Source of the DNA: an uncultured Planctomycetales bacterium
Lineage (GTDB): Bacteria; Planctomycetota; Planctomycetia; Isosphaerales; Isosphaeraceae
Length of the DNA: 48,309 bases
NCBI GenBank assembly: GCA_903926465.1
Contig: CAIYJE010000006.1
Coordinates: 1 to 48,309, forward strand
Reading direction: 5' to 3'
Notes under the pieces: generated by a model
Seen by the model: only the letters and a program-made list of their open reading frames with translations
Told to the model about the DNA's origin: nothing
Databases searched by the model: none
Made by a program: the position numbers and the translations under genes
Shown: one piece after another, positions 22,087 through 38,356 of the stretch
Layout of the letters: each line of letters begins with the position of its first letter
How positions within the stretch are numbered: the stretch's first letter is position 1

Positions 22087-22641
22087 TTAACGTCCTGTAT
22101 CCAGCCAGAGCCCCTGCAACCGTACCGGCTCCAGCAGATCCTTGAATAACAGGTCGCCCTGGCCCAGCAGGTTCTCGGCCCCAGAGCTTCCCAGCAACAT
22201 CCGAGACTCAATATCCCGGGCCATCTGCAGGCCCGCCGCGCGGGCCTTGGAACCCAGCCGGGTAATCAGACCTTCAATCGACTTGCGCTGCACCCGGTCT
22301 CCCGCCAGCAGGTCGGCATACTCCTCACATACACAAACAATCCGCGGCGTGGGTTTGCTCACCCTGCGCATATAGTGAGCCCAATCCTCGGCTCCAATCT
22401 GCTCCATCGACTGATACCGATCGTCCATTTCTTCCACCAACCGCTCGAACGCGGCCGTGGCCGGCTCTTGGTGGTGCAGAATCGGTTCAAGCAAGTAGGC
22501 AGATTCACGCCAGCGACGGAATCCCACCCGCTTGGGGTCGATCAGAACCAGGCGGAGCGTCTCGGGCCGGTTGCCATGAATCAGGCCGGCAATGGCCGCG
22601 TTCAGCCATTCGCTTTTGCCACTCCCCACGGTGCCGGCCAC
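22087..22641 (-). CDS. FtsK/SpoIIIE-type DNA translocase motor, probably a broken gene
   Basis: The readable part is 184 residues from a GTG at 22639-22641. Walker A is AGTVGSGKSEWLNAAI; further on are VLIDPKRVGF, a Walker-B-like RIVCVCEEYADLL and the late motif LLGQGDLLFKDLLEPVRLQG. These fit the FtsK/SpoIIIE motor core. The same frame continues upstream as family-like sequence (VPLGIDLDG, then LRLADLSRPEHTHLLV), but a TAA at 22687-22689 interrupts it exactly where relatives have an ordinary residue. The frame opens at 22884, inside the end of the ATPase gene. The product also ends soon after the motor core, next to the inverted-repeat element. It is probably a decayed gene or a motor with a lost N-terminus, and the third member of the cassette with the two genes upstream. 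Confidence 0.65.
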   Translation of the reverse strand: MAGTVGSGKSEWLNAAIAGLIHGNRPETLRLVLIDPKRVGFRRWRESAYLLEPILHHQEPATAAFERLVEEMDDRYQSMEQIGAEDWAHYMRRVSKPTPRIVCVCEEYADLLAGDRVQRKSIEGLITRLGSKARAAGLQMARDIESRMLLGSSGAENLLGQGDLLFKDLLEPVRLQGLWLDTGR

Positions 22642-22726
22642 CAGCAGGTGCGTATGCTCGGGTCGAGAAAGATCGGCCAGACGTAGTTACCCGTCGAGAT
22701 CAATTCCCAACGGTACGCAATGGCGT

Positions 22727-24772
22727 TCACGCCTTGGACCCGGTAACCGCTGCGGATACCGGTTGTTCAGGCGCTGCCACACCCATGGCAACCCGCTGGA
22801 AAACCACACAGGGTGGGCCTGCCAGCGAGCCAAACCGATCAGGGAATCTCTCAAGGCAACGACCGAGCAGGTCAGCCGAGACCTTTAACACCTCAACCAA
22901 CCGCTCTACGGCCACCACCGGACAGTTCTGTAAGGCGTCAGCCAGTCGATCGGCCAGCGCTTCCAGGTCGGGCTCGTCAGATTTTTCGAGCAGCGGGGGG
23001 CGAGGATACTCAAAGACCTGTTCCACCAGGTCGCCCACAACCGCCGGTACTTGGCGTTCCAGCCAGCCTTGCACGCTGGTCACGGAAATCGGGTCAGCAT
23101 CCCGGCAGAGGTCACCCGATTGCGCATCGGCCAGCAAAGATCGCAGGGCATCAAGCGCAGCCAGCATCTCTGGCGTGGTGCGTAAAAAAGCGGCTCCCCG
23201 ATCACGCAACGCCTTGAGCTGCCTGGTTGCGGCATCACCACGAATCGGCTCCCGGATGTCGCGAACCACCACCACCTTCTCAAGCCGGCCATCATCCAGC
23301 GCCTGCCGCAATCGTTCGAGCGGTCGCCAGGCTGCTCTCATATCCAGCGCATCACAAACGTGGATTGCCACCCGCCCTTCCGAGCCCGCATAAACGCCAT
23401 CCACATCACCCGCCCGCAACCCCGGCACCGGTTCGGTCAGCCGTTTCCACTGCCCGCGCTTGAGAACCGCGGTAAGGTGCGGCAAAGTGGCAACCAGAAT
23501 CTCGCGGGCTCGCTCACTGCCCACCTTGGAAACCGCTTGTTCCCTACGCCTGGCAAATAACTCTCCCAGATACTCGGGAAGTGGCTGAGATCCGGCTGAG
23601 ATTCCGGTCTCTGGCCGATGGCCATCGAACATCTGGGCACATTCGTTGAGCAGTTTACGAGGGTTCAGTCCCTCACGCCCCACGGCCGCCTTCAGTGCCA
23701 CCAGGTCCAGGGGCCAGAGTGATGGCATCCCCAGAGACTTCCGACGCACCTCCAGTTCAGGCACGATCTGATCGCGAACCTGAATCAGGGCCTCGGCCTC
23801 TGGCCAAAGCAACGGGTTGAGCGCCACCTGATTCATTGCCATCCGATCATAGGCCGGCTGCGTGACGCCGTCTTCAATGTCCTGGATCCGGCCAGATTGC
23901 ACGCAAGAAATGAGCAGCAGGTTGGTGGTCCGGCTGAAGAGATCCATCAGCATCTGACCAAACGCGAAAAAGCCGCTGGTATCTCGACGTTCAAGCTGAA
24001 GGGCTTCGATCTGGTCGAACGCAAAGACGATCGGAATCCTGGGCCCGGCCAGCCGACAGAGCGCCGTGACCACCTCTCGGGCCTGATCTTCGGGAGAAAT
24101 GTCTGGATCTGGCAGCCCCAGACCGATCAGGGAGAGGGCCGACTCAGGCAACGGATCTCCTCGGAGCCAGGCCAAGGCCTCACGCCCGTGTCGGTTCAGA
24201 ATCAGGTGACTGAGCACCACCGTAAGGTCTCGACCCAGCCGTTCCTGAATGCTCAACCGATCCATCAAGCCGTCGATGATCGATTCAAAGGCGGCCGGCT
24301 GAGGATCTAGCTGACGCAGCCAGTCCCACCAAAGGGTCAGGTCGGCGTCGGCCGGACGAAGCTCGGCAAACCGGCGAAGCAGAATGCGTTGCAGTTGCGG
24401 GTGGTGGTCGGTCCCCGGACGCATCAGGTCGCCCACGAACTCTTTGCGCAAATTGCGCCAGATTTGCTGGGCGCCGGCCGCCAGCTTCACCGCCACAAAT
24501 GCAACCTCGGGCAAGATCGGATCGACCGGTTTTTCGCCATTCCCCAGGCAGAAACGGCGCAACCGAGAAAGCAGATGGGTTTTGCCGCTGCCCGGCTCTC
24601 CCAGCACAAGCAGGCCATGGTTCCGCCCCTCAAAGCGAACTGCGTCGAGCGCCCGAGTGCAAACCTGAAAGGCGGTTGCGTGAATGCTGGTCACCTCGGC
24701 ATCACCACGCTGCCAGGCGTCTGGGACCACGGTCAAGCGATACGGATTGCGGAGGTCGGCCGTCGTGAGCAT
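22727..24772 (-). CDS. Large P-loop ATPase of the FtsK-linked cassette
   Basis: The protein has 681 residues from the ATG at 24770-24772, one base after the TGA of the upstream gene. Residues about 1-60 lead into Walker A (LLVLGEPGSGKTHLLSRL). Walker B is RIPIVFAFDQIEAL, with Asp-Gln in place of the usual Asp-Glu, followed by LLLISCVQSGR. This resembles ORC/STAND-type AAA ATPases. The C-terminal third (VDGVYAGSEGRVAIHVCDA; KVVVVRDIREPIRGD) looks like a restriction-endonuclease-type alpha/beta fold, with catalytic residues uncertain. I do not recognise a named family. Tight coupling to the wHTH-like gene and to the FtsK motor suggests a common DNA-handling task. Confidence 0.75.
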   Translation of the reverse strand: MLTTADLRNPYRLTVVPDAWQRGDAEVTSIHATAFQVCTRALDAVRFEGRNHGLLVLGEPGSGKTHLLSRLRRFCLGNGEKPVDPILPEVAFVAVKLAAGAQQIWRNLRKEFVGDLMRPGTDHHPQLQRILLRRFAELRPADADLTLWWDWLRQLDPQPAAFESIIDGLMDRLSIQERLGRDLTVVLSHLILNRHGREALAWLRGDPLPESALSLIGLGLPDPDISPEDQAREVVTALCRLAGPRIPIVFAFDQIEALQLERRDTSGFFAFGQMLMDLFSRTTNLLLISCVQSGRIQDIEDGVTQPAYDRMAMNQVALNPLLWPEAEALIQVRDQIVPELEVRRKSLGMPSLWPLDLVALKAAVGREGLNPRKLLNECAQMFDGHRPETGISAGSQPLPEYLGELFARRREQAVSKVGSERAREILVATLPHLTAVLKRGQWKRLTEPVPGLRAGDVDGVYAGSEGRVAIHVCDALDMRAAWRPLERLRQALDDGRLEKVVVVRDIREPIRGDAATRQLKALRDRGAAFLRTTPEMLAALDALRSLLADAQSGDLCRDADPISVTSVQGWLERQVPAVVGDLVEQVFEYPRPPLLEKSDEPDLEALADRLADALQNCPVVAVERLVEVLKVSADLLGRCLERFPDRFGSLAGPPCVVFQRVAMGVAAPEQPVSAAVTGSKA

Positions 24773-24773
24773 C

Positions 24774-25748
24774 TCAGATTCTCCACGAAGCGGCGTTATA
24801 GAGGCCATCATGATCATCGGGAACCAGCGCGGCCCGTTCTTCAACCGTCAAGCCGTGGGGATCGTCGTGGCGATGCAGGGCCACGCGATGCGTAGCGGCC
24901 AGCCAGCGCACGGCGTTATCGAACTCGGCCTTGGTTTCGGCCAGATCCCAGCAAAGGGTCCGGAGCCGATCCAGGCGAACCATGGCCCCGGTCCGCACGG
25001 CCGGGTTCAACTCGGCCATCCGGTCATAAATCAGTTGCGCCAGGGTCGAAAGATCGCCATGCACCGGTAGAACGGAACCGGGCGTGGTATCTAGGGGTGG
25101 AGTGGTGGCCGTTCCAAGTTCACGCTGAAGCATGCCCAGCAGCGCACGCTGGAGCGCCCCCTGCTCCACCCCAAACGGCCCGAGCGCCACGGCAAGCGTC
25201 TTGATTTGCTTTTTAAGGTTTTTCAGCGTGGGAGCCAGATAGGCTTCGGGGCGAGGCGGCGTGGTGCCATAACTGAGATCGCCGGGCTTGACCTGGATCT
25301 TTCCAGCGGCCGTGCACTTGGGGTGAACAAACACCCGCCGATCGTTGATCAGTTCCTCAAGCACTCTGGGCAAATTGATGCCGGGTGCGTACTCGGCCAG
25401 GGCCTTGATCGCCTGACTTTTCAACTTGGCGAACGAGAACGGGGCCGCCGGCCCAGAAAGCACCTCGATCACCGTCAACCGGGCAAGCTCTTCGATAGAG
25501 CGGGTGCTATAGGCGGGCTTCTTCTTGGCCGAGGCTGCCGGTAGCAGAATCAGCCGCCCCTCGGCCACCAAGCCGGCAAGGATCGGCTCCAGGGCCACGG
25601 CCGACCGTTTGAACGGTCCCACCAGATTTTTGGCCAGAACGGCCACCGTTACCGGTTTCTGAATTGCGTGAACCGCATCGATCAGAGCACTGGCAAGGAC
25701 AGAGTCTGGCACCTGCGATGCCGGTTTCACACGCGCACTTCGGGCCAT
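24774..25748 (-). CDS. Winged-helix-like protein of unknown function, first gene of the cassette
   Basis: The protein has 324 residues from the ATG at 25746-25748, with GGAGGTG 8 nt upstream. At least two modules look like winged helices: about residues 17-80 (VLAKNLVGPFKRSAVALEPI then LVAEGRLILLP) and 88-145 (TVIEVLSGPAAPFSFAKLKS then LINDRRVFVHPK). The C-terminal 90 residues form a third helical region (LDRLRTLCWDLAETKAEFDN) ending in HRHDDPHGLTVEERAALV. There is no enzyme motif, signal peptide or membrane helix. The ATPase gene starts 1 bp after its stop, so the two are translationally coupled. A DNA-binding adaptor or regulator is a reasonable guess. Confidence 0.7.
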   Translation of the reverse strand: MARSARVKPASQVPDSVLASALIDAVHAIQKPVTVAVLAKNLVGPFKRSAVALEPILAGLVAEGRLILLPAASAKKKPAYSTRSIEELARLTVIEVLSGPAAPFSFAKLKSQAIKALAEYAPGINLPRVLEELINDRRVFVHPKCTAAGKIQVKPGDLSYGTTPPRPEAYLAPTLKNLKKQIKTLAVALGPFGVEQGALQRALLGMLQRELGTATTPPLDTTPGSVLPVHGDLSTLAQLIYDRMAELNPAVRTGAMVRLDRLRTLCWDLAETKAEFDNAVRWLAATHRVALHRHDDPHGLTVEERAALVPDDHDGLYNAASWRI

Positions 25749-28894: not shown

Positions 28895-30346
28895 ATGGTC
28901 CCCAGTCGTGCCTCGCTCCAGCAAATCATTGAAGCCTGCGGAATCCGGCTGACCTCACCTCAGTACGACCAGCTCTGGGCCTACCACCGTCTGCTGCGCG
29001 AAGCGAACGAAGAGCTGAACCTGACCCGGATTCACAATTTTGAAAACATGGTGCTCAAGCACTATGTTGACTGCCTCCTCGTGCTCAAATTCGAGGAGCT
29101 GCCAGACCCACTCGTCGATATGGGCTCTGGCCCCGGCCTGCCAGGTATCCCGCTAGCGATCGCCCGCCCCGATACACAGATCATCCTGGCCGAAACCCGG
29201 GCCAACCGCACCACCTTCCTGCAAGACGTGGTGGATCGTCTGGGTCTGCCCAATGTGGCCGTGCATACCGGCAGCGTGGGCCCCAAGTTCCGGATTCCCG
29301 TTCAGGGGGTCATCACACGGGCTGTGGCCACCATCCCGGAAACCCTGGAGCGGGTTCGCCCCTCACTGGAACCGGGCGGGCGGGTGCTGTTCATGAAAGG
29401 GCCAGACTGTGATGACGAGATCCGAGCGGCTCGTGAAATGGCCGACTCCCCGTTCCGACTCGTCGCCGATCACCCGTTTTCCATCCCAGACACTCCACAC
29501 CGCCGTCGCCTGGTGGTTTACCAGAGGGAACCCGATCTCGTGGACCAGCAGCCGCCAGACGCACCGCAGTCGTACAATCAGTCCCGTTACGGTCGCCTGA
29601 TCTCAAGCGCCACCAATCCCACGTTCAAGCTGGCCAGTGAGGGCCTGACCGGGCGGGGAATCCGCAAGCATGGCCATGCCCTGATCGCCGGTTCCAAGAT
29701 TGTAGCGGAAGTGCTGGCCCAGCATGCCCAGGTTGTGGAAGCCTGGCTCACCCCCACCGACGGCCCGCCGCCACCGGAAGGGACCACGGCCAATATCGAC
29801 TGGCACCGGCTCGATCCGTCGCTGTTCGAACGACTTGACGTCTCAGGCACACGCGGCCCCCTGCTTTTGGTGCGCGTGCCTGAAATTCCTGTCTGGTCAG
29901 CCCAGAAGGAATGGCCGCTCGGCTGTACGCTGTTCATCCCGTTTCAGGACCCAGAAAATGTGGGCGCGGTGATCCGGTCGGCCGTGGCCTTTGGCGTGAG
30001 CCGGGTTGTGCTGCTGAAGGAGGCTGCGCACCCGTTCCATCCCAAGGCCAGCCGTGCGGCCGGCCCGGCCCTGTTTTCGGTCCAGTTTGAAACTGGACCC
30101 TCGATTCAGGACTTGCAGAGCGGAGAGATCCCGTTGATTGCCCTGGCCGCCGATGGTGCGCCCATTGGTGAATGCTCCTGGCCCGAGCGGTTCGGCCTGG
30201 TCCCCGGTGTGGAAGGCCCCGGCCTACCTGAAGGCTGGGAGCCGACCAAGCGGCTGCGGATCCCAATCGAACCGCAGGTTGAGTCTCTGAACGCGGCGGC
30301 CGCCACCGCTGTGGCACTCTTTGCCTGGAGGATGGGCAAACGGTGA
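28895..30346 (+). CDS. Fusion of RsmG (16S rRNA m7G methyltransferase) and SpoU/TrmH RNA methyltransferase
   Basis: The protein has 483 residues. Residues 1-215 match RsmG/GidB: NLTRIHNFENMVLKHYVDCL, SAM-site DMGSGPGLPGIPLAIARPD, FLQDVVDRLGLPNVAV and VITRAVATI. Residues about 225-483 match the SpoU class: an N-terminal substrate-binding part (NPTFKLASEGL, KHGHALIAGSKIVAEVL) and the trefoil-knot motifs QDPENVGAVIRSAVAFGVSR, VEGPGLPEGW and RIPIEPQVESLNAAAATAVA. RsmG methylates G527 of 16S rRNA; the target of the SpoU half is not predictable. The join is continuous, without stop or frameshift. It is 8 bp downstream of the ABC permease and convergent with moaB. Confidence 0.88.
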   Translation: MVPSRASLQQIIEACGIRLTSPQYDQLWAYHRLLREANEELNLTRIHNFENMVLKHYVDCLLVLKFEELPDPLVDMGSGPGLPGIPLAIARPDTQIILAETRANRTTFLQDVVDRLGLPNVAVHTGSVGPKFRIPVQGVITRAVATIPETLERVRPSLEPGGRVLFMKGPDCDDEIRAAREMADSPFRLVADHPFSIPDTPHRRRLVVYQREPDLVDQQPPDAPQSYNQSRYGRLISSATNPTFKLASEGLTGRGIRKHGHALIAGSKIVAEVLAQHAQVVEAWLTPTDGPPPPEGTTANIDWHRLDPSLFERLDVSGTRGPLLLVRVPEIPVWSAQKEWPLGCTLFIPFQDPENVGAVIRSAVAFGVSRVVLLKEAAHPFHPKASRAAGPALFSVQFETGPSIQDLQSGEIPLIALAADGAPIGECSWPERFGLVPGVEGPGLPEGWEPTKRLRIPIEPQVESLNAAAATAVALFAWRMGKR

Positions 30347-36580: not shown

Positions 36581-38206
36581 TCAGCCCACCAGCGCGCCCA
36601 CTTGCTGGAGCGCGGTCTGCACATCTTTGATCTTGATTGGCTTGTTCAGCAGAACCAGGCGGTCATCGAGCGGAAACTCATCGACCAGATCTTCTTGCTT
36701 GGGGCCCAAGATCACAATGGCGGCCAGGTCGTGGCGGTCATCATGCGCTTTCTGATGCATGGCCAGAAACACATCCAAGCCATCGGAATGAAGGCCATCC
36801 AGATCATAGAGCAGGACGTCGGCCGGACTCTGATGAAACTGTTCGGCGGCCTGGTTAGCCGCTCCAAATACGGAGACCTCAAAGCCCATCTTGATCAGCG
36901 ATTTCTTGAGCGCATCTTGAATACCGGCCTGCGCTTCAACCACCATCACACGCTTCCCAGGAACCGCCACGCCGCTCACTCCGCCCACAGGCCGGGCAAT
37001 GGCAGGAGCCGCGGCAACCGCAGGGTCGGAAGCAGAAGTTGGTTTGGCCACAGCGGCCGCAGATGGTGCGGGCGGTGCAACAACTTCGGCACTGGCGGGA
37101 AGGGTGCCACGCTGGCGACCAAAGGCCTCGGCAAACAGATCTTCATCCGTGGCCGGTGCCTCAATCGCCACCTCTGCCGTTGCTGAGGAAGACTTGCCAG
37201 TACGACGACGCTCAAAAATATCGAGGTCCCGCAGAACTTCGGCCATGTTCTGGTACCGCTGCTCAAGCTTGATATTCATCATCTTTTCGATGATCTGGCA
37301 GAGTTCCGCGGGCGGAGCGTACCGCAGTTCAGCGAGCGGCTTGATGGCACCAAAACTACGCTTGAGCATTTTGGCCAGCGGGTCGGCCGTTTCCACCTCT
37401 GGCAACGGTAACACCCCGGTCAGCATCTGATAAAACACGCAGCCCATAAAGTAGATGTCTGAGCGGGCATCCCCCTTGGGACTGCCGCAGGTTCGCTCCA
37501 GCGCCGAGTAATCCACGGTTCGGGTATGCGCAAACTCGGTCACGCGATCATCGCCCACGTTGGCGAGCCCGAAGTCCACCAGCTTGGCCTCGCGTTTGGT
37601 CGAGATCAGGATGTTCGTGCCTTTGATATCGCGATGCGTCACGGAATTATCGTGCGAATACCTCAGACCACGCGCCATCCCCAGCAAGATCGGTAACGCC
37701 TCGTCGGCACCCAGCCGACCTCGCAGCTTGAGGAAATCACGCAGGTTGGAGCCTTCGACGTACTCCATGATCATGTAATGGAGTTTGTCGGTTTCGCCAA
37801 ATTCGTGAATCTTGACGATATTCGGATGCAGCAGCGCCATCCCGGCTTCGGCCTCTTGCGCAAACCGAGCCACGGAGGCCGCATCGGTGGTAAACCGCCG
37901 GCGCAAAACCTTGATCGCCACGGCTTCGCCAGATTCGGTGCGTTCACCCCGGTACACCCGGGCGAACGTCCCTTCGGCAATATGGAACAGCACCTTGGCC
38001 GGACCATAAAAGAAGCCGCTGAAGTCTCCTTTGAGAAGCTTGTCCCGCTGCCAGCTTGTCAGCCAGCCTTTTCGCATCAGGGTGCGTGTCATTCCGTCCA
38101 CGCTCCAGTCCGTGGCCTCCTCCTTGGCTTCACGCATCTGGGAGGTTGAGATCAGGCTGAGCCTGATCATCTGATCGGCGAGTTCTTCGGTATCATAATT
38201 CGCCAT
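36581..38206 (-). CDS. Ser/Thr protein kinase fused to a response-regulator receiver domain
   Basis: The protein has 541 residues from the ATG at 38204-38206, with AGGA 6 nt upstream. The first ~65 residues are the planctomycete kinase prefix (MIRLSLISTSQMREAKEEA; LMRKGWLTSWQRDKLLKGDF). The kinase domain spans about 70-335: glycine-rich loop EGTFARVYRG, AIKVLRR lysine, HRDIKGTNILIS catalytic loop and DFGLANVG. An Ala/Pro/Val-rich linker (about 340-415) leads to a receiver domain (about 420-540). Its phospho-acceptor Asp is in LLYDLDGLHSD and the conserved Lys in LNKPI; the first acidic pair is reduced to VVEA. There is no transmembrane helix. It joins Hanks-type and two-component signalling in one chain. 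Confidence 0.88.
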   Translation of the reverse strand: MANYDTEELADQMIRLSLISTSQMREAKEEATDWSVDGMTRTLMRKGWLTSWQRDKLLKGDFSGFFYGPAKVLFHIAEGTFARVYRGERTESGEAVAIKVLRRRFTTDAASVARFAQEAEAGMALLHPNIVKIHEFGETDKLHYMIMEYVEGSNLRDFLKLRGRLGADEALPILLGMARGLRYSHDNSVTHRDIKGTNILISTKREAKLVDFGLANVGDDRVTEFAHTRTVDYSALERTCGSPKGDARSDIYFMGCVFYQMLTGVLPLPEVETADPLAKMLKRSFGAIKPLAELRYAPPAELCQIIEKMMNIKLEQRYQNMAEVLRDLDIFERRRTGKSSSATAEVAIEAPATDEDLFAEAFGRQRGTLPASAEVVAPPAPSAAAVAKPTSASDPAVAAAPAIARPVGGVSGVAVPGKRVMVVEAQAGIQDALKKSLIKMGFEVSVFGAANQAAEQFHQSPADVLLYDLDGLHSDGLDVFLAMHQKAHDDRHDLAAIVILGPKQEDLVDEFPLDDRLVLLNKPIKIKDVQTALQQVGALVG

Positions 38207-38356
38207 GATCGGTCCTGCAGGAGGGAGCTGCGGCACGGTCAACCGTGATATTCGTCTGACCTGGGGGGTTCACGCAAACTTAACAGACAACTATAGCACT
38301 CTGATCAGCGCTTTCCACCGGCCGCAATCCCCAGTTGGGCCAAAGTCTGCGAATGA

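What the first reader, a model, noticed from the sequence alone, without database searches (positions are those of the whole stretch)
22087..25748. Unrecognised three-gene cassette: winged-helix-like protein, large P-loop ATPase and FtsK/SpoIIIE motor
The first two genes are one base apart and the FtsK frame overlaps the ATPase end, so all three look like one operon. The ATPase has a GEPGSGKT Walker A, an unusual Asp-Gln Walker B and a C-terminal part resembling a nuclease-type fold. The first protein has repeated winged-helix-like modules. An AAA ATPase plus an FtsK/HerA-type pump plus a DNA-binding adaptor recalls DNA-processing or anti-phage systems, but I know no named system with this make-up. 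The defence idea is inference.
Basis: partly seen in the sequence, partly recalled or inferred. Interest (0 to 1): 0.7.

Follow-up and report, generated by a model that had tools for sequence, protein, structure and literature searches.

The report
Broken copy of predicted defence operon
A planctomycete carries two intact genes and the wreck of a third from a three-gene DNA-capturing, defence-type operon that was already predicted by computation in 2024, so the cassette is real and widely spread but in this genome its nuclease-and-motor gene is dead.

Summary
The trio is real, but its third gene is not a working motor. A (25748-24774) encodes tandem winged helices. B (24772-22727) encodes an Orc/Cdc6-TnsC-BrxC-clade AAA+ ATPase, a restriction-endonuclease-like domain without a catalytic D/E-x-K, and a C-terminal winged helix. 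C (22716-22087) is the wreck of a PD-(D/E)XK nuclease-FtsK protein: the first ~290 residues are gone, TAA interrupts the frame at 22689-22687, an in-frame 28-residue deletion removes the ATQxPSR block, and the Walker B Asp is Glu.

Elsewhere A-B-C stand in the same order in 14 complete operons (9 more are cut by contig ends) from at least six phyla, and a diverged one lies on a cyanobacterial conjugative plasmid. Flanks vary. Variants swap FtsK for HerA, or fuse B to FtsK beside a Ser/Thr kinase.

The parts match the Orc/CDC6-coupled 'HerA/FtsK capture systems' predicted by Rakesh, Aravind and Krishnan (NAR 2024, PMC10853773). This copy is most likely a recently decayed member. Three other loci keep B with C missing or reduced, so loss recurs.

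The parts
24774..25748 (-). Gene A, 324 aa, three winged-helix modules; probable DNA-binding adaptor. Intact.
   Evidence: ORF; AlphaFold2 model pLDDT 90; profile hits to SelB and Hop2 winged helices; homologues directly upstream of B elsewhere
22727..24772 (-). Gene B, 681 aa, Orc/Cdc6-TnsC-BrxC-clade AAA+ ATPase (residues 1-390), restriction-endonuclease-like domain without D/E-x-K (about 420-535), C-terminal winged-helix-like end (about 603-659). Frame intact; the last ~20 residues have no counterpart in relatives.
   Evidence: AAA_16 2.8e-7; model pLDDT 86; Foldseek and VIA Z 14-16 to Cdc6/ORC/TnsC/BrxC; column conservation
22087..22716 (-). Remnant of gene C, the nuclease-FtsK protein. 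Only the part from VPLGIDLDG onward is recognisable. Longest open piece after the stop: 184 aa from GTG 22641.
   Evidence: tblastn with five intact relatives; genome search reports 1 TAA inside; PF01580 1.1e-21
22687..22689 (-). In-frame TAA inside the FtsK motor region, just before the Walker A strand
   Evidence: sequence and translation
22230..22231 (-). Junction of the in-frame 28-residue deletion that removes the block with ATQxPSR (13 columns invariant in nine relatives)

Best explanation
The locus is a decayed copy of an Orc/CDC6-coupled HerA/FtsK capture operon. In intact relatives the probable mode of action is this: A (winged helices) and B (an Orc/Cdc6-like AAA+ ATPase with a dead nuclease fold and a winged helix) bind and load on DNA and choose the target; C is then engaged, its FtsK motor pumps the DNA and its PD-(D/E)XK domain cuts it. 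Shown here: the domain make-up, the conserved operon order across phyla, and the lesions in this copy. Inferred: the order of action, invading DNA as the target, and that this copy can no longer pump or cut.
For: A-B-C in the same order in 22 of 25 informative loci of other genomes, with varied flanks and on a conjugative plasmid in diverged form. B has the Orc/Cdc6 fold; intact C has GxxFH, D, (E/D)xK, QxxxY nuclease motifs, FtsK-alpha and an FtsK motor. The parts are those listed in PMC10853773. Window C: N-terminal ~290 residues gone and not found elsewhere in the genome, with positive controls, in-frame TAA, 28-residue deletion, Walker B D to E.
Against: No experiment shows anti-invader activity for any member. 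Neighbours are mostly housekeeping genes and defence enrichment is weak. The genome is a draft of 207 contigs, so a misassembly at the large deletion cannot be fully excluded. What is left of C is nearly as conserved as an intact copy.
Confidence: 0.72

Rival explanations
1. A system for upkeep of the cell's own DNA (repair or segregation) rather than anti-invader defence: the ATPase loads on damaged or stalled DNA and the nuclease-motor processes it.
For: FtsK-alpha and the motor are like cellular FtsK; neighbours are mostly housekeeping genes.
Against: Patchy distribution: only the window and one other of 45 genomes of its family have an orthologous B. Motor swaps, plasmid carriage, mixing of phyla in the B tree and repeated loss of C are more like a defence or mobile module.
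Confidence: 0.13
2. The short FtsK-like protein (184 aa from GTG 22641) is a trimmed but still useful product, so that the three genes still work together here.
For: Beyond the single TAA the frame stays open, and its identity to relatives (47-58%) is close to that of an intact copy (49-59%).
Against: It lacks the nuclease, the FtsK-alpha part and the ATQxPSR block, and has Glu for the Walker B Asp. The first start codon lies at the Walker A strand.
Confidence: 0.06
3. The damage is an assembly error in a draft genome, and the organism has an intact gene C.
For: The genome is a draft of 207 contigs with 2.95% estimated contamination.
Against: Three independent lesions, one a clean in-frame 28-residue deletion, and no trace of the nuclease part elsewhere in the genome although the same query finds it in G003, G444 and G336.
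Confidence: 0.07

Closest known systems
Orc/CDC6-coupled HerA/FtsK capture systems (Rakesh, Aravind and Krishnan, NAR 2024, PMC10853773)
   Same: Orc/CDC6 AAA+ ATPase with an inactive REase between the AAA+ core and a C-terminal wHTH; active REase with FtsK (with FtsK-alpha) in relatives; [quoted passage not shown] variants with a different HerA motor without FtsK-alpha
   Different: In the window the REase and motor gene is broken. A Ser/Thr kinase neighbour in five related loci is not mentioned in the passages I read.
DndFGH and SspFGH restriction modules
   Same: Three genes with a Walker A ATPase, a winged-helix protein (DndG) and an FtsK/HerA motor protein (DndH, SspH) (PMC10853773, PMC8092258)
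   Different: A and B match no Ssp or Dnd model. C matches SspH only over the generic motor, and that model also rings in 8 of 14 control genomes.
BREX BrxC ATPase
   Same: Same Orc/Cdc6 AAA+ clade; best Foldseek match by E-value (9zll) and VIA Z about 14-15
   Different: B is about half BrxC's size (1200-1300 residues) and is paired with FtsK, with no PglZ or methyltransferase noticed beside it.
MADS (mad6 kinase, mad8 motor models of PADLOC)
   Same: Kinase and motor models match the kinase-linked variants
   Different: Generic kinase and motor matches only; the window has no kinase beside the trio.

Membership tests
Orc/CDC6-coupled HerA/FtsK capture system | Orc/CDC6-family AAA+ ATPase | tested here: met
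   Model of window B: Cdc6/ORC/TnsC/BrxC with Z 14-16
Orc/CDC6-coupled HerA/FtsK capture system | Inactive REase domain between the AAA+ core and a C-terminal wHTH | tested here: inconclusive
   Window B 420-535 has REase-like order of elements, weak EcoT38I matches (Foldseek E about 0.007-0.02) and no conserved D/E-x-K; a winged-helix-like end follows at 603-659. The domain was not folded and searched alone.
Orc/CDC6-coupled HerA/FtsK capture system | Active REase (intact orthologues) | tested here: met
   GxxFH, D, (E/D)xK and QxxxY nearly invariant in alignment A7; homologous to the Cas4-like domain of the HerA variant. Activity itself not tested.
Orc/CDC6-coupled HerA/FtsK capture system | Active REase (the window copy) | tested here: not met
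   Absent from the window and the rest of the genome, with positive controls. The window is therefore filed only as a decayed descendant, not as a working member.
Orc/CDC6-coupled HerA/FtsK capture system | HerA/FtsK motor | tested here: met
   Intact in orthologues; recognisable (PF01580 1.1e-21) but broken in the window
[quoted passage not shown]
   Window A model shows three
Orc/CDC6-coupled HerA/FtsK capture system | Interception of invader DNA | not testable with these tools
   A proposal of the authors; no experiment found
SspFGH | SspF and SspG homologues | tested here: not met
   A and B match no SspF or SspG model of PADLOC at E up to 1
SspFGH | Neighbouring sspBCD modification genes | not tested
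   No dedicated search for sspBCD was made in the genome

The most novel reading that the evidence does not exclude
A and B form a DNA-bound complex that is kept for its own sake after the nuclease-motor C is lost, so that capture systems would have a separable, non-cutting function that evolution repeatedly uncouples (window, L110, L117, L130).
Probability: 0.1. Interest if true: 0.5.

Novelty: new member of a known kind. Interest (0 to 1): 0.33.

Why it matters
It extends a class of predicted anti-invader systems to Isosphaeraceae, shows its operon form across at least six phyla and, in diverged form, on a conjugative plasmid, and shows that the cutting-and-pumping gene is lost or reduced in several loci while the ATPase stays intact. 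That would fit a costly effector. It also points to intact relatives, such as the one in Minicystis rosea, that could be tested in a laboratory host.

Tried and rejected
That the missing 28 residues of FtsK are normal for the subfamily: rejected, all nine intact relatives have them. Membership in SspFGH: rejected, the SspH match is the generic motor. Defence-island enrichment: 90 neighbours gave few PADLOC matches, and the best, 'DpdF', looks like a RecQ-type helicase; no random-gene control was run. A conserved further partner: clustering of neighbours gave none besides a Ser/Thr kinase in five loci. A genome-contig scan with the window's B alone found nothing; the three-sequence alignment was needed. 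A viral scan gave one 45-residue match only, and the phage records none for G444's B. A search for MADS papers returned only unrelated ones. No structure was predicted for C (cap reached). Searches failed on input.

Full report
What is there.

Gene C is a wreck. Against intact relatives (G003 of the same family, G444 of the same class, G336, L109, L125) the window keeps only the piece from VPLGIDLDG onward. The in-frame TAA falls in that piece, and an in-frame 28-residue gap runs from KARAAG to LxMxxxxESRM. The gap removes ATQxPSR; 13 columns invariant in nine relatives fall in it, and the Walker B Asp is Glu. The N-terminal ~290 residues, nuclease included, are not found elsewhere in the genome, while the same query finds its target in G003, G444 and G336. 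B's last ~20 residues have no counterpart in relatives and low model confidence, which fits a deletion that took B's own end and C's beginning. What remains of C is nearly as similar to relatives as an intact copy, so the decay is probably recent.

What the family is. Orthologues of B in GTDB genomes (L107-L134) come from Planctomycetota, Myxococcota, Thermodesulfobacteriota, Pseudomonadota (Chromatiales), Verrucomicrobiota, Acidobacteriota and Campylobacterota (Arcobacter). Of 25 loci with enough sequence downstream of B, 22 have an apparently normal C next to B (in Minicystis rosea fused to B), one has a reduced C, and two have none. A precedes B wherever the contig reaches far enough, except in L128 and L130. 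With G444, on a closed chromosome, 14 operons are complete; nine more are cut by contig ends. In G003 the trio is split over two contigs; C's start follows B at the end of one and the rest is on the other, so contiguity there is inferred. A conjugative plasmid of Pseudanabaena PCC 7367 carries a diverged version annotated as hypothetical protein, P-loop NTPase and DNA translocase FtsK, near an IS21 element. The B tree mixes Myxococcota with Thermodesulfobacteriota and pairs a Chromatiales row with a Pirellulaceae row, which suggests transfer, though binning and taxonomy caveats apply. Of the 45 genomes of the window's family only the window's own and G003 have an orthologue of B; in G003 it lies beside the same ABC-transporter gene.

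Variants. In one genus of the window's family and two further genomes, A and B stand before a Cas4-like nuclease joined to a HerA-type motor. hhalign links the B proteins (E 2e-42), the nuclease domains (E 3e-14) and the last winged helix of A (E 8e-8), while the motors were not aligned. In G093, G009, G063 and G072, B and FtsK are one protein and a Ser/Thr kinase is the neighbour; L116 (Polyangiaceae) has a kinase just before A.

Domains. AlphaFold2 gives A as three winged helices. B has an AAA+ part like Cdc6/ORC, TnsC and BrxC, then an alpha-beta domain with restriction-endonuclease-like order and weak EcoT38I matches but S-x-C where D/E-x-K would be expected, then a winged-helix-like end. 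Intact C has nuclease motifs, FtsK-alpha and an FtsK motor.

Comparison. PMC10853773 lists the same parts for a class of mobile neighbourhoods: Orc/CDC6 ATPase, inactive REase between the AAA+ core and the C-terminal wHTH, active REase of two families, HerA/FtsK with or without FtsK-alpha, and in a subset a gene with 2-4 wHTH domains. The authors propose interception of invader DNA. I found no experimental test, but the paper library is incomplete. The operon family is thus a member of a described, untested class; the window's copy, which lacks the nuclease, is a decayed descendant.

Mechanism. Most likely A and B recognise and load on the DNA, and C pumps and cuts it. This rests on the families, not on a test here. 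In this genome pumping and cutting should be lost. L110, L117 and L130 also keep B with C reduced or absent, so loss of the effector recurs; whether A and B then keep a role is open.

Limits. The genome is a draft of 207 contigs; the neighbour survey had no random-gene control; the REase-like reading of B rests on topology and weak matches; only part of PMC10853773 was read and its supplement not at all.

Noticed in passing
L110 11106-12050; L117 downstream of 5114; L130 6422-8401: Three other loci keep an intact B while C is reduced to a nuclease-only fragment (L110) or absent (L117, and L130 which also lacks A).
   Followed up: partly
L046 6611-7882, L047 11980-13242, L102 10878-12128, L103 7892-9121, L116 4235-5908: A Ser/Thr kinase recurs beside the operon, mostly where B and FtsK are fused into one protein; in L116 it lies directly upstream of A.
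   Followed up: partly
L151 (Pseudanabaena sp. PCC 7367 plasmid NC_019690.1) 7117-12076: A diverged version of the trio on a conjugative plasmid near an IS21 element.
   Followed up: partly
window 28895-30346 +: One 483-aa frame looks like an RsmG/GidB-type methyltransferase fused to a SpoU/TrmH-type RNA methyltransferase (by eye only).
   Followed up: no
window 36581-38242 -: A Ser/Thr kinase appears fused to a response-regulator receiver-like domain (by eye only).
   Followed up: no
L049 1-660 (G003 contig C540): The first ~650 bases look chimeric (histidine-kinase-like piece running into a QueA-like piece) before the FtsK gene; possibly a misassembled contig end.
   Followed up: no
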